64,000 nt of DNA. Origin: Puia sp. (GTDB taxonomy: Bacteria > Bacteroidota > Bacteroidia > Chitinophagales > Chitinophagaceae). Shown here piece after piece: positions 43,160-50,810 of this stretch. The stretch lies in assembly GCA_031292515.1 (NCBI GenBank), contig JARLGZ010000076.1:62001-126000 (forward strand). Reading direction: 5' to 3'. The first letter of the stretch is position 1. Each line of letters opens with the position of its first letter. The position numbers and the translations under genes were made by a program. The notes under the pieces were generated by a model that saw only the letters and a program-made list of their open reading frames with translations, did not search any database and had not been told where the DNA came from.

Positions 43160-44725
43160 TTAAAAAGGAGCGTCTTCCTCATCCATTGGCAGGTCTTTCA
43201 TCCTGCTGCCGGCCTGGATATAGAGCTTGGCTCCTGCTCCGCCTTCGTCGTCCTGCACCGGTTTCCAGTTTCCGCCCGAAGGCATGCCGATGCCGCCGAA
43301 GTCGTCGGCGCCATATTCGGTAAATTTCTGGATATGGAGCAGGGCGCGCAACTTGACCGTTTCCAGGGAGCCATTACGATGTTTGGCGATTTTGACGTGT
43401 GTCTCGCCTTTATTGCTTTCGCCCATTTCGTTGGCGGTGATGCCATAGTATTCCGGTCTGTACAGGAACATGACCATGTCCGCGTCCTGCTCGATGGCGC
43501 CCGATTCGCGGAGATCGCTCAACTGGGGGATCTTCTCTCCTTCCTTACGTGATTCGACCGCCCTGCTCAGCTGTGAGAGGGCGATGATCGGCACCTGGAG
43601 TTCTTTGGCGAGTCCTTTCAGGTCGCGGGAAATACGGCTGATCTCCTGTTCACGGTTACCGTTCTTGCTATCGCCGGCGCCGCTCATGAGCTGCAGGTAG
43701 TCGATGATGATGATGCCGACATTGTGTTTGTTCCGGAGGCGACGGCACTTAGCGCGCAACTCGAAGATGTTCAGGGCGGGCGTATCGTCTATGAATATGG
43801 GAGCTTTGGCCAGCTTGTCGATTCCCTTTTTGTATAATTGCTTCATTTCGTGTTCCTCCAGTCTGCCGCGGGCGATCTTCTCCATGAAGATCTCGCTTTC
43901 GGCGCTCAGGATCCTCTGCACGAGCTGGGCGGAACTCATTTCCAGGCTAAAAAAGGCGACCGGTGTCGGCTTGGTCGGGTTCAACGCGGCGTTGCGGGCC
44001 AGGTTGAGCGCAAAAGCGGTCTTACCCACGGAGGGGCGGGCTGCCAGGATGATCAGATCGGTCGGCTGCCATCCGTAGGTGATCTTGTCCAGGGACGGGA
44101 ATCCGCTCGGCACCCCGGTGATCTCCTCCTGTTTGTGACGGAGGTCTTCGATACGCTGGATCGTCTTGACGAGTACCGTATCGATGCTGTCGAAATTTTT
44201 ACGAAGGTGATTGTTGGTGATTTCGAAGAGTTTGCTTTCCGCATCGTCGAGCAGGTCGAAGACGTCGGTGCTGTCTTCGTAGGCGTCGCCGATGATCTCG
44301 CCGCTGATGCGTATCAATTCGCGCTGGATGAATTTCTGAAGGATGATGCGGCAATGGGTATCGATATTGGCGGCCGATACGACGGAGTTGGTGAGTTTCG
44401 TCACATAATAGGGGCCTCCTACGATGTCCAGCTCCTCACGCATCTTCAATTCTTCTACAACGGTAAGAATATCAATAGGTTGGCTCTTCTGGGCGAGTCC
44501 CTGCATAGCGTGGTAGATCCGCTGGTGTCCCTCAAGGTAAAAGCATTCCGGCTTCAGGATCTCCACGACCGTATCGAAAGCGCTTTTTTCCAGCATGATG
44601 GCGCCCAGGACGGCTTCCTCCAGCTCCCTGGATTGCGGGGGTACTTTTCCATATACCATGGTACTCAGGTCTGCCGAAGGCTTGCGTCTGAGTTTACGGT
44701 CTTTATTGAGATTTGTCAGGTCCAT
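43160..44725 (-). CDS. dnaB: Replicative DNA helicase DnaB
   Basis: 521 residues. N-terminal collar domain (PQSRELEEAVLGAIMLEKSA), linker, then the RecA-like domain with Walker A ARPSVGKTAFALNLARNAA, the Walker B-like IIIIDYLQLMSG, the H4-type loop SRDLKGLAKELQVP and the arginine finger region near FLYRPEYY. It is the hexameric helicase at the replication fork. The C-terminus has a Gly-rich linker and ends in an acidic tail (LPMDEEDAPF), a pattern usual in Bacteroidota and also seen in SSB proteins. No intein is present. The gene is followed by a terminator and preceded by a 0.5-kb AT-rich gap with DnaA-box-like sites. Confidence 0.97.
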   Translation of the reverse strand: MDLTNLNKDRKLRRKPSADLSTMVYGKVPPQSRELEEAVLGAIMLEKSAFDTVVEILKPECFYLEGHQRIYHAMQGLAQKSQPIDILTVVEELKMREELDIVGGPYYVTKLTNSVVSAANIDTHCRIILQKFIQRELIRISGEIIGDAYEDSTDVFDLLDDAESKLFEITNNHLRKNFDSIDTVLVKTIQRIEDLRHKQEEITGVPSGFPSLDKITYGWQPTDLIILAARPSVGKTAFALNLARNAALNPTKPTPVAFFSLEMSSAQLVQRILSAESEIFMEKIARGRLEEHEMKQLYKKGIDKLAKAPIFIDDTPALNIFELRAKCRRLRNKHNVGIIIIDYLQLMSGAGDSKNGNREQEISRISRDLKGLAKELQVPIIALSQLSRAVESRKEGEKIPQLSDLRESGAIEQDADMVMFLYRPEYYGITANEMGESNKGETHVKIAKHRNGSLETVKLRALLHIQKFTEYGADDFGGIGMPSGGNWKPVQDDEGGAGAKLYIQAGSRMKDLPMDEEDAPF

Positions 44726-44940
44726 TATTCTATCCGTCCAAAAGAATTAAAAAATATTGTGTCCTTCGGTGTGGCTTCCGTCCGTGGTCTGGTCCTTCGG
44801 GCACGCAGACGAGGAGGCCACATGGTTAAATCGAACTCTTTTAACCAGGCTCATTGGGTCAGTGTTCTCGGCCTTGTTGTTAAGAAATTATTATGGCAGT
44901 ATGAACGGAATGTTATCCCTTTGAGTCAGGAGGGCGAATA
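44726..44940. other. Upstream part of the dnaB gap, no gene seen
   Basis: About 215 bases of mixed composition next to the dnaB start. An AT-rich stretch directly precedes the dnaB ATG on the minus strand (TTAAAAAATATTG). There is no open frame with protein character and no tRNA. Confidence 0.4.
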
Positions 44941-45113
44941 TAAACCCCAAACTCCCGTTCAAAAAATTTTTTCTTTTTCTATATTTTTCCTTCGATAATC
45001 CACCTGGTTATCCACAATAAATCAAGGCTTACCCACAGTATTGTTTCGGCTTTCCACAATTTAAAAAAGTTTTCAGCTTTTTGTCTTTTTAAATTCACAC
45101 AGTCTGTGCAGAA
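44941..45113. other. AT-rich region with phased DnaA-box-like sites: candidate origin or dnaB control region
   Basis: TTATCCACA (45008-45016) is a perfect DnaA box. TTACCCACA (45029) has one mismatch and CTTTCCACA (45050) two; all three face the same way at exactly 21-base spacing, two helical turns. TAATCCACC (44996) and the reverse-strand TTCTGCACA (45113-45105) are weaker sites. AT-rich blocks flank them: 44958-44990 with runs of A and T, and 45058-45096. Genes to the left run left and most to the right run right. These are the parts of a bacterial oriC, but a DnaA-regulated dnaB promoter is equally possible. Confidence 0.45.
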
Positions 45114-45182: not shown

Positions 45183-45218
45183 AAAAAAGCCGGTCTCTTG
45201 CAGACGGGACCGGCTTTT
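45183..45218 (-). terminator. Rho-independent terminator of the DUF6600 gene
   Basis: A stem of eleven pairs, AAAAGCCGGTC / GACCGGCTTTT, with a 14-base loop and a T-run on the minus strand, 20 bases after the stop codon. Confidence 0.85.
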
Positions 45219-45238: not shown

Positions 45239-46846
45239 TCAATCCTGTTTTACGGGTTTTGGGGGTGGAGGAGGTGGTTTTCTGAATCTGCCGGCTTTAT
45301 TCGGCTGGCCGGGCTGCTGTCCGGCTTGTCCTGGTTGTCCCGTGTGAGCCTGTCCACCGGGTTTGACAGCGTTGCTGCTGCCGTTGTTGTTGCCGTTGTT
45401 GCCCGCACCGCTGCCCGTTATGCCACCGGCTCCGTTGTGTTGCCCGTTGTTTTGACCATTGCTCTGGCCGTTATTTTGCCCGTTGTTCTGTCCGTTGTTC
45501 TGTCCGTTGGCGAACCGATTGCTACCCGGGGGATTCGTTGGGGCGCCGGAGGCGCCGTTCGCGCCGTTTCCACGACCGGTATAGGTTCCATTCGTCTGTC
45601 CGTTGCCCGGACCGCTGTGGGCGGGAGGATTGACGGCCGGGGCGCCTGTCGCGGGTCTCGGGAAACCACCTGCGTTCGCATTGCCCGCGGGGGGCTGCGG
45701 CCGATTCACCGGTGTCGTGACTGCCGGGGTATTATTCGCCGGGGCATTGGGCGGCGTATAGACACGACTGGCTCCGGGTGTCGTATTGTTGGGGGCGTTG
45801 CTGTTATTCGGCGGAGTATTGCCCGGCACCGCATTGTTTGAAGGTGTGCGATTCGCCGGAAGATTATTGCCTGCGGCCGGCCTGTTAAAATTGGGAGAAG
45901 GTCGGAGGCTTTGGAAAGACTGCACACGGGAAGGAGCCGGTGTTCCCGCGGGCGGGGTTCCATTTCCGGCGGCCCGGTTGCCGCCGCCTGCACCAGCGGA
46001 GGGCGCCGCATTTACGCGGGGACGGTACAGTGACAGCTGGCCGCCCGTATTTTGCTCGCCGGGACGGTTTGCGGTCCGCAGTGCGACCGGTCGGAGCGCA
46101 GCGCCTGTGGCCGTTTCCACTTCCCGGGGATCCGGACCGCCTGCATAGGTGTTGCGATTGATCGTGGTGTTGTTGATCGTCGTATTGCTGATGCGGTTGT
46201 TGGTGATATTGTTATTGGTCACATTATTGTTGACAATCGTGGTATTGTTGATGACAGTCGTGTTATTGATGATCGTCACATTTTTCGTCTCATTGACATA
46301 GTAATTGTTGATTTGCGGGCTCGTGACGTACTGGTGGGGCACGAAGTTCCAGTAGTGGGCGGGCGGGTTGTAGCCGCCACCGAATGAGACGCTGACGCTG
46401 ATATTCGGTCCCAGCGGCGCCCAGCCGTAATAGTCGGGGCTTCTTCGCCAGCTGACCCAGGCGGGTGACCAGTCGTATCCGGGGATCCACATCCAGCCAT
46501 AACCGTCCTGGAAGAACCAGCGGCCGTAGTGAAAGGTAGCCCAGCCCCAGTTATAATCGGAGGACCATACCCATCCGGCGTCGCTATATACCCAATGCCC
46601 GTTGGTAGCATACGGTTTGAAATCGGGTCCGACATCCGGACGCCACACATAGCCATAATTGGGATAGTCGATCCATTCTCCGTAAGGGCTGAGATCGTCG
46701 TAAAAAGTTTGATAGGTGACTTCCGGTTCCGCGGGCGGTGGTGGTGGCGGGATGGGGGCCGGTCTCGATTCGACGACTATCTGGGTGGGACCACAGGAAG
46801 TCAGGGCGATCGCCGATATGGCGACCGCAAACAGCAGTTTCTTCAT
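45239..46846 (-). CDS. DUF6600-like lipoprotein with long low-complexity tail
   Basis: 535 residues. A lipoprotein signal ends at the Cys in AISAIALTSCGPTQ. Residues about 45-165 are the aromatic YGEWIDYPNYGYVWRPDVG / WGWATFHYGRWFFQDGYGW region typical of DUF6600 (YXWGXW-like) proteins, with SPDYYGWAPLGP at its end. Then comes an Asn/Thr-rich beta-helix-like stretch (VTIINNTTVINNTTIVNNN), a long disordered part rich in Pro, Asn, Gly and Ala with Asn-Gly-Gln-Asn repeats, and a basic Pro-rich end. It should sit in the outer membrane facing the periplasm or the surface. Function unknown. It is divergent from pheT. Confidence 0.75.
   Translation of the reverse strand: MKKLLFAVAISAIALTSCGPTQIVVESRPAPIPPPPPPAEPEVTYQTFYDDLSPYGEWIDYPNYGYVWRPDVGPDFKPYATNGHWVYSDAGWVWSSDYNWGWATFHYGRWFFQDGYGWMWIPGYDWSPAWVSWRRSPDYYGWAPLGPNISVSVSFGGGYNPPAHYWNFVPHQYVTSPQINNYYVNETKNVTIINNTTVINNTTIVNNNVTNNNITNNRISNTTINNTTINRNTYAGGPDPREVETATGAALRPVALRTANRPGEQNTGGQLSLYRPRVNAAPSAGAGGGNRAAGNGTPPAGTPAPSRVQSFQSLRPSPNFNRPAAGNNLPANRTPSNNAVPGNTPPNNSNAPNNTTPGASRVYTPPNAPANNTPAVTTPVNRPQPPAGNANAGGFPRPATGAPAVNPPAHSGPGNGQTNGTYTGRGNGANGASGAPTNPPGSNRFANGQNNGQNNGQNNGQSNGQNNGQHNGAGGITGSGAGNNGNNNGSSNAVKPGGQAHTGQPGQAGQQPGQPNKAGRFRKPPPPPPKPVKQD
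45439..45512. repeat. In-frame NGQ(N) coding repeat in the DUF6600 gene
   Basis: Six or seven 12-base units of CCGTTGTTCTGT type, coding Asn-Gly-Gln-Asn on the minus strand; some units differ by one base and give Ser or His. Confidence 0.8.
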
Positions 46847-50165: not shown

Positions 50166-50423
50166 TCAGACCCTTTTGACGAGGCGCATTTTCATTTCAT
50201 CGGTGCCCCGGGAAATCTCAAGGGTATACACGCCGTAGGGCAGGTCGTTGAGGCCGTTCCAGTTAAGAAAACGCTGATCTTTTTCAACTTCCGTTTCCAT
50301 GGCGCTGCATACAATTCCGGTATCGTCTTTCAAAACGGCTTTAAGAAGGCATTTACGGGGATGGTTGACTTCAAAGGTCAAGCGGTCGATGAATACGGGG
50401 GACTTGATTTTTAGGAATATCAT
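50166..50423 (-). CDS. Short beta-strand protein resembling a stand-alone sorting-domain-like module
   Basis: An 85-residue protein from the ATG at 50423; the frame runs further up but would overlap zapA and is AT-rich. Sequence such as VFIDRLTFEVNHPRKCLLK and FLNWNGLNDLPYGVYTLEIS reads as a small beta-sandwich, and the GVYTLEIS...MRLVKRV end resembles the FlgD-like or type IX C-terminal domains. It has no signal peptide and no larger protein attached. It is convergent with the coiled-coil gene and divergent from zapA, so it interrupts an otherwise rightward housekeeping cluster. I do not recognise a family; a cytosolic protein of unknown function is the safest reading. Confidence 0.55.
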   Translation of the reverse strand: MIFLKIKSPVFIDRLTFEVNHPRKCLLKAVLKDDTGIVCSAMETEVEKDQRFLNWNGLNDLPYGVYTLEISRGTDEMKMRLVKRV

Positions 50424-50497
50424 GGTTGTTTCAAGGTTATTGGGTACGCTCAGAAACTGAATCGGATTTGGATTTAATAGACAGGTTCTGAATAATA

Positions 50498-50506
50498 TGT
50501 GGATAA
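50498..50506 (-). promoter_or_regulatory. Perfect DnaA-box sequence upstream of zapA
   Basis: TGTGGATAA is the reverse complement of TTATCCACA and sits in an AT-rich stretch 22 bases before the zapA start. A single box of nine bases can occur by chance. Confidence 0.35.
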
Positions 50507-50528
50507 ATATAAAATAAGAATTTGAACT

Positions 50529-50810
50529 ATGCAAGATTTAATTCCAATTAATGTCGTCATAGGTGATCGCACTTACAGGATCAAGATAGAACCGGCGGAT
50601 GAAGAGGTAGTCCGGAAGACGTTGAAAACGATTAATGACAAGATTGTGGAGTTCAAAACCCTTTTTGCCGGGCGGGATATGCAGGATTATGTGGCCATGG
50701 TGCTGCTGTGGTATGCCACCCAGGCTTCGATCGGGGCCAAACCGGGCATCACCAGCGCGGTTTCGGAGGCGCTGACGCGGATGGAACAATTGCTCGACCG
50801 GGCGTCCTGA
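50529..50810 (+). CDS. zapA: Cell division protein ZapA
   Basis: 93 residues. LIPINVVIGDRTYRIKIEPA is the N-terminal beta hairpin, and EEVVRKTLKTINDKIVEFKT then MQDYVAMVLLWYATQ start the long coiled-coil helix of ZapA proteins. ZapA binds FtsZ and cross-links its filaments at the division site in the cytoplasm. The length fits the family. The upstream small coiled-coil gene and downstream rny are its usual neighbours in Bacteroidota. The start overlaps the leader of the minus-strand small gene, and a DnaA-box-like site precedes it. Confidence 0.92.
   Translation: MQDLIPINVVIGDRTYRIKIEPADEEVVRKTLKTINDKIVEFKTLFAGRDMQDYVAMVLLWYATQASIGAKPGITSAVSEALTRMEQLLDRAS

What the first reader, a model, noticed from the sequence alone, without database searches (positions are those of the whole stretch)
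44941..45113. Phased DnaA-box array in an AT-rich gap: candidate chromosome origin or DnaA-controlled dnaB promoter
Three sites, TTATCCACA, TTACCCACA and CTTTCCACA, lie in the same orientation at exactly 21-base spacing (45008, 45029, 45050), with two weaker sites around them and AT-rich blocks on both sides. Phased DnaA boxes beside an AT-rich unwinding region are the hallmark of bacterial origins. The replicative helicase gene is adjacent, genes to the left mostly point left and genes to the right (pheT, zapA, rny, rplS, tat, gatA) point right. Against it: the DUF6600 gene, the converging small gene at 50166 and the minus-strand block after 59 kb do not fit a simple picture.
Basis: partly seen in the sequence, partly recalled or inferred. 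Interest (0 to 1): 0.72.

Follow-up and report, generated by a model that had tools for sequence, protein, structure and literature searches.

The report
DnaA-box array docked to dnaB promoter
This is probably not where the chromosome starts replicating but a control region in front of the gene for the replication helicase DnaB, where evenly spaced landing sites for the replication starter DnaA keep a fixed distance to the promoter in most of the related bacteria examined, suggesting that DnaA sets the helicase supply.

Summary
In detail: TTATCCACA 45008, TTACCCACA 45029 and CTTTCCACA 45050, one strand, 21 bp apart. It is not chance. Same-strand boxes lie upstream of dnaB in 46 of 50 family loci examined and, with a looser box, 28 of 28 genus loci, mostly 21 or 42 bp apart. 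In the genus 59 of 66 boxes sit 65, 86, 107, 128 or 148/149 bp (+-1) from a conserved promoter-like TATATTCG, though that motif is 67-328 bp from the ATG; Flavihumibacter profundi shows the same 65/86/107. The array thus belongs to the promoter.

Origin reading: not supported. In five complete relatives sampled skew never favours the dnaB gap; in four of five it favours the gap upstream of nadA, which carries a DnaA-box/DnaA-trio element, also in this genome. Own-genome skew is uninformative at both places.

Best reading: DnaA on a phased array regulates, more likely activates, dnaB. DnaA control of dnaB is reported for Caulobacter and DnaA binding there for Mycobacterium; the register-locked array is a new variant. 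Binding and expression are untested.

The parts
43160..44725 (-). dnaB, replicative helicase, 521 aa; the controlled gene
   Evidence: Pfam DnaB_C 1.3e-103 and DnaB N-terminal domain 1e-31
44726..44930 (-). inferred untranslated leader of dnaB, about 205 nt, with TAAC-type repeats 11 bp apart near its start
   Evidence: start inferred from the -7 motif (no transcript data); TAAC spacing counts
44935..44942 (-). promoter-like -7 element TATATTCG (one change from the Bacteroidota consensus TAnnTTTG)
   Evidence: nearly invariant column block in 28 genus loci; coordinates; consensus from passages of PMC6847099
44996..45004 (+). weak DnaA-like box TAATCCACC, 53 bp from the -7 motif
45008..45016 (+). 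DnaA box 1, TTATCCACA, 65 bp from the -7 motif
45029..45037 (+). DnaA box 2, TTACCCACA, 86 bp from the -7 motif
45050..45058 (+). DnaA box 3, CTTTCCACA, 107 bp from the -7 motif
45055..45073 (+). strictly conserved block CACAATTTAAAAAAGTTTT that overlaps the end of box 3; role unknown
   Evidence: exact in 25 of 28 genus loci, 28 of 28 with one free position; exact in 3 of 48 other family loci
45091..45099 (+). weak box AAATTCACA, 148 bp from the -7 motif (one 21-bp step skipped)
45105..45113 (-). opposite-strand weak box TTCTGCACA, 162 bp from the -7 motif
   Evidence: 25 of 28 opposite-strand boxes found in the genus loci lie at exactly 162 bp
45185..45218 (-). hairpin with GC-rich stem, likely terminator of the upstream DUF6600 gene; separates it from the dnaB unit
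   Evidence: 13-pair stem; reported on +, but the A-run at its left end gives a T-run on minus; I4

Best explanation
The gap is the regulatory region of dnaB. A Bacteroidota-type promoter (-7 motif TATATTCG, 44935-44942, minus) drives dnaB with a leader of about 205 nt. Upstream of it lies an array of DnaA boxes, all in one orientation, in steps of 21 bp (two helical turns), at 65, 86, 107 and (one step skipped) 148 bp from the -7 motif, closed by an opposite-strand box at 162 bp. DnaA molecules would sit on one face of the helix, in fixed register with RNA polymerase, and change dnaB transcription; the upstream position suggests activation. dnaB expression would thus follow the amount or ATP-state of DnaA. 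Shown here: the sites, their conservation, the fixed distance to the promoter motif. Inferred: that DnaA binds, that the motif is the active promoter, the sign of the effect.
For: Same-strand boxes (<=1 mismatch) 100-450 bp upstream of dnaB: 70 in 46 of 50 family loci (50 of 93 genomes with a match were examined), 3 on the other strand, shuffles mean 4.2, max 10. Box distances peak at 21 and 42 bp: 43 and 19 of 105 pairs in 28 genus loci; 45 of 191 pairs at 20-23 bp and 39 at 41-44 bp in 50 family loci. Register: 59 of 66 boxes in 27 measured genus loci at 65/86/107/128/148-149 (+-1) from TA-N-TTCG, expected 11% if uniform; 49 of 93 boxes in 42 measured of 48 other family loci. Meanwhile the motif-to-ATG distance runs from 67 to 328 bp in the genus, so the array keeps to the promoter, not to the gene. 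Flavihumibacter profundi (named Chitinophagaceae), found by pattern alone, has boxes at 883, 904, 925 and TATATTCG at 999, i.e. 65/86/107. The dnaB pair is the best 21-bp pair of the genome in G000, G002, G007, G014 and G067, 5 of 12 genomes searched. Precedent: dnaB is in the DnaA regulon of Caulobacter (review passage) and DnaA of M. tuberculosis binds upstream of dnaB, a mutant that binds less there also under-expresses dnaB (passages).
Against: No DnaA binding, transcript start or expression data. The -7 motif differs from the consensus TAnnTTTG and no -33 element was established. The boxes are degenerate in some relatives: G011 of the same genus has no box that could be measured (L135); 14 of 42 measured family loci have none in register; G042 and G092 have no 21-bp pair at dnaB within 3 mismatches (G059's list was cut off). 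In 18 genomes of other families of the class only 3 have a same-strand box, so it is not a general feature of the class. DnaA itself was not found in this assembly, though present in 32 of 39 relatives. Genus loci share ancestry, so their counts are not independent.
Confidence: 0.75

Rival explanations
1. The gap is the chromosome origin: DnaA fills the array, melts the AT-rich flank and loads the helicase.
For: Several DnaA boxes, AT-rich flanks of about 80% AT, dnaB next door.
Against: Skew fits in five complete relatives do not favour dnaB (ranks 31-63%) and favour the nadA gap in four of five. The nadA gap has at least two boxes (<=1 mismatch) within 700 bp in 27 of 27 genomes (no shuffle made for this count) and a box-plus-trio element in 13 of 27 against 0-2 in shuffles, while the dnaB gap has it in 5 of 76, shuffles 0-2. 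The array is fixed to a promoter motif. Weakness: the window's own genus has no complete genome here and its skew is uninformative at both sites; the skew samples are 10-28 stretches per genome.
Confidence: 0.05
2. A DnaA-titrating or DnaA-reactivating locus (datA- or DARS-like) that happens to lie next to dnaB.
For: A cluster of boxes away from the origin; conserved extra blocks such as CACAATTTAAAAAAGTTTT and the opposite-strand box at 162 bp could serve a larger nucleoprotein complex.
Against: A sink need not keep a fixed register with the dnaB promoter while the leader length varies. It is always beside dnaB in the loci examined because loci were chosen by dnaB, so this cannot be used either way.
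Confidence: 0.08
3. The repeat is the operator of another regulator whose site resembles the DnaA box; DnaA is not involved.
For: Box 3 is embedded in a longer strictly conserved sequence; several sites deviate from the DnaA consensus; the repeat spacing of 21 bp is not the tight spacing of known DnaA filaments (recalled).
Against: The commonest site is the exact consensus TTATCCACA: present same-strand in 22 of 50 loci, none on the other strand, shuffle mean 0.3; the variable fifth base and the fixed CACA end match DnaA preference (recalled). DnaA and dnaB are linked in other phyla.
Confidence: 0.1

Closest known systems
dnaB in the DnaA regulon of Caulobacter crescentus (Hottes et al. 2005, as told in PMC8203912)
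   Same: Predicted DnaA boxes upstream of the replicative helicase gene; expression depends on DnaA.
   Different: Another phylum; the passage seen describes no phased array or fixed register.
DnaA binding site upstream of dnaB (Rv0057 region) in Mycobacterium tuberculosis (PMC7738170)
   Same: DnaA binds upstream of dnaB; weaker binding by a DnaA variant goes with lower dnaB expression.
   Different: Another phylum; binding shown by experiment there, only predicted here; the passages seen describe no 21-bp array.
Bacterial origin with basal unwinding system (DnaA boxes plus DnaA-trios; PMC8287927)
   Same: Several DnaA boxes beside AT-rich DNA.
   Different: No trio element at the array beyond a few loci (5 of 76) and no skew support; the nadA gap fits this kind instead.
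datA / DARS sites of E. coli (recalled)
   Same: DnaA-box clusters outside the origin.
   Different: Here the boxes are in fixed register with a promoter motif; no IHF/Fis site was tested.

Membership tests
Bacterial chromosome origin (oriC) | Lies at the strand-skew switch (origin side) | tested here: not met
   Five complete relatives: dnaB ranks 31-63%, nadA gap 0.0-0.8% in four and 15.4% in one. Own genome: no switch at either place, so met in neither there.
Bacterial chromosome origin (oriC) | Cluster of DnaA boxes in an AT-rich intergenic gap | tested here: met
Bacterial chromosome origin (oriC) | Box plus short spacer plus DnaA-trios (basal unwinding system; not obligatory in all origins) | tested here: not met
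   5 of 76 dnaB gaps, shuffles 0-2; nadA gap 13 of 27, shuffles 0-2.
Bacterial chromosome origin (oriC) | Replication starts there | not testable with these tools
   Needs marker frequency or initiation mapping.
DnaA-regulated promoter of dnaB | DnaA boxes upstream of dnaB, conserved beyond chance | tested here: met
   46 of 50 family loci, 70 same-strand boxes, 3 opposite, shuffle mean 4.2.
DnaA-regulated promoter of dnaB | Boxes placed relative to a promoter | tested here: met
   Fixed distances to TATATTCG in genus and most family loci; that the motif is the promoter is inferred.
DnaA-regulated promoter of dnaB | DnaA binds the site | not testable with these tools
   No binding data; no DnaA ChIP paper for Bacteroidota found.
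DnaA-regulated promoter of dnaB | dnaB transcription depends on DnaA | not testable with these tools
   No expression data.
datA/DARS-like DnaA-control locus | Alters DnaA-ATP level or titrates DnaA; IHF/Fis-type sites | not tested
   No assay; such sites were not searched for.

The most novel reading that the evidence does not exclude
The region is a DnaA-operated, register-locked enhancer: DnaA copies on one face of the helix, two turns apart, build a platform that touches RNA polymerase at dnaB, so that the supply of the replicative helicase reads out DnaA-ATP oligomerisation, while the origin itself lies elsewhere (upstream of nadA). A DnaA array whose phase to the promoter is kept across a whole bacterial family would be a distinct mode of DnaA action in transcription.
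Probability: 0.35. Interest if true: 0.68.

Novelty: new variant of a known kind. Interest (0 to 1): 0.5.

Why it matters
DnaA is best known for starting replication; direct control of the helicase gene is described for few bacteria. If this array works as proposed, in a large Bacteroidota family the initiator also sets how much helicase is made, through a geometry (21-bp steps at fixed distance from the promoter) that can be tested base by base. The same work points to the gap upstream of nadA as the likely origin of these genomes, far from both dnaA and dnaB, which would help origin calling and growth-rate estimates from read depth in Chitinophagaceae.

Tried and rejected
Rejected: origin at the dnaB gap. 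Skew inside the window alone showed no switch at 45 kb; in the own genome and in genus-mate G009 it showed none at nadA either, so own-genus skew was not used as proof. The class-wide check outside the family found no such array in most of 18 genomes. dnaA upstream regions: 10 of 23 readable loci have a box, one further locus gave no ORF. Shuffles in my scripts are first-order Markov resamplings, not exact dinucleotide shuffles; the motif was chosen with a box 30-170 bp upstream, which selects for presence but not for register.

Dropped rows: L311 (second half of a split dnaB) from the genus set; L135 from the genus register count; six of 48 family loci from the register count, five in the looser count. 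Of 93 family genomes with a dnaB match 50 were examined.

Literature searches for DnaA boxes or DnaA control at dnaB in Bacteroidota; for a nadA origin. None of the listings named either; the library lacks most subscription papers.

Full report
What is there. The finding lies between dnaB (43160-44725, minus; Pfam DnaB domains) and a DUF6600 gene (45239-46846, minus), whose likely terminator hairpin is at 45185-45218. Weak boxes lie at 44996 and 45091 on the same strand and at 45105 on the other. The stretch is AT-rich. The window is part of contig C205 of an unnamed 7.3-Mb genome in 285 contigs. The family is unnamed in the data; Flavihumibacter profundi, whose DnaB is 76% identical, is a Chitinophagaceae, so I infer that family.

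Is it more than chance? Single boxes are not: 14 in the window against 11 expected, 43 in the genome against 40 for a reversed control. The arrangement is. Upstream of dnaB in 50 family genomes (the 30 best and the next 20 matches, of 93 with a match) there are 70 same-strand boxes in 46 loci and 3 opposite-strand ones; Markov shuffles give 4.2 on average and at most 10. In 28 genus loci (28 of 33 genomes had a match) 43 of 105 box pairs are exactly 21 bp apart and 19 exactly 42 bp. In a search of 12 genomes for two boxes at 21 bp with up to 3 mismatches, the dnaB pair is the best of the genome in five (G000, G002, G007, G014, G067), is listed at 3 mismatches in four (G009, G056, G060, G122), is missing in two (G042, G092), and one genome (G059) was cut from the list; overall counts in this search are only modestly above or even equal to the reversed control, so the pattern as such is not enriched genome-wide.

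The array is tied to the promoter. Reading the genus loci side by side shows a nearly invariant TATATTCG block that resembles the Bacteroidota -7 element TAnnTTTG (passages of PMC6847099). Measured from it, the boxes fall at 65, 86, 107, 128 or 148/149 bp (+-1): 59 of 66 boxes in 27 of 28 genus loci, against 11% expected if uniform; 49 of 93 boxes in 42 of 48 other family loci, 28 of the 42 having at least one. The motif itself lies anywhere from 67 to 328 bp from the start codon in the genus. An opposite-strand box lies at exactly 162 bp in 25 of 28 cases found. Flavihumibacter profundi, found through the pattern alone, repeats 65, 86 and 107. Steps of 21 bp are two helical turns, so the boxes face the same side of the DNA and keep phase with the polymerase. 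This is what one expects of a transcription control region and not of an origin or a passive sink. Exceptions are real: genus member G011 has a degenerate array (L135), and a third of the measured family loci have no box in register.

Where the origin probably is. Genome G056 shows five exact boxes within 210 bp at 2.3757 Mb, where the strand of exact boxes also changes along the chromosome; the cluster lies beside nadA. In 27 of 27 genomes tested the nadA gap has at least two boxes with at most one mismatch within 700 bp. Fits of sampled skew in five complete genomes put the nadA gap at the best 0.0, 0.5, 0.0, 15.4 and 0.8% of positions, dnaB at 31, 36, 63, 35, 32% and dnaA at 61, 44, 50, 75, 56% (20-kb stretches, 10 to 28 per genome). 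Support is strong in G060 and G056, rests on AT skew alone in G122, is moderate in G092 and weak in G042. The nadA gap carries a box, an 11-bp spacer and CTAATAGTAATA in this genome; such a box-trio element, as defined after passages of PMC8287927, is in 13 of 27 nadA gaps (10 of them this conserved CTAATA-type form), against 0-2 in shuffles, and in 5 of 76 dnaB gaps. In the window's own genome skew switches neither at dnaB nor at nadA, so the origin of this very genome rests on the comparison.

How it most likely works. DnaA binds boxes 1-3 and the weaker ones, forming a row on one helix face next to the dnaB promoter, and changes dnaB transcription. Activation is more likely than repression because the sites are upstream of the promoter, and because in M. 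[quoted passage not shown] In Caulobacter dnaB has predicted boxes and belongs to the DnaA regulon (passage of the review PMC8203912). Shown here: sites, conservation, register. Inferred: DnaA as the binder, the promoter, the sign.

Limits. The array was found in the family only; 3 of 18 genomes from other families of the class have any same-strand box. DnaA was not found in this assembly with three family models; genus-mates carry dnaA 150-180 kb from dnaB, so it may lie in an assembly gap. The conserved block at box 3 and the TAAC repeats after the promoter suggest further regulators that this account does not explain.

Verdict. Observation confirmed; origin reading not supported; dnaB-promoter reading supported by comparative evidence and given 0.75. 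It is a new variant of a known kind (DnaA acting at dnaB), with moderate interest.

Noticed in passing
G000:C226:93397-94383 and the gap upstream (L253); also L240-L266: Likely chromosome origin of the family: DnaA boxes and a box-plus-trio element upstream of nadA, at or near the skew switch in four of five complete genomes.
   Followed up: partly
window 44882-44916 (minus), start of the dnaB leader: TAAC/TAAT repeats 11 bp apart just after the promoter motif: in 28 genus loci 29 pairs at 11 bp, 25 at 22 and 23 at 33. They look like a PhoB-type direct repeat (recalled), perhaps a second regulator.
   Followed up: partly
window 45055-45073: CACAATTTAAAAAAGTTTT overlapping box 3 is exact in 25 of 28 genus loci, more conserved than the boxes themselves; binder unknown.
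   Followed up: no
G000 assembly: No dnaA found with PF00308, TIGR00362 or PF08299 in a genome rated 99% complete; in genus-mates G007, G009, G011 and G014 dnaA lies 150-180 kb from dnaB.
   Followed up: partly
L012, L013, L015, L016, L018, L020: A TTATTCACA box about 300 bp upstream of dnaA in 6 of 8 genus loci, possible DnaA autoregulation.
   Followed up: no
G056:C1:2763571-2763805: A second group of three exact TTATCCACA, with the best 21-bp pair of that genome, away from dnaB and nadA.
   Followed up: no
window 50498-50506: The only other exact TTATCCACA of the window, on minus, inside the small ORF 50166-50534 that has no Pfam match.
   Followed up: no
L386 (G180, another family), 305 and 362: Two exact TTATCCACA upstream of dnaB in the opposite orientation to the Chitinophagaceae arrays.
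   Followed up: no
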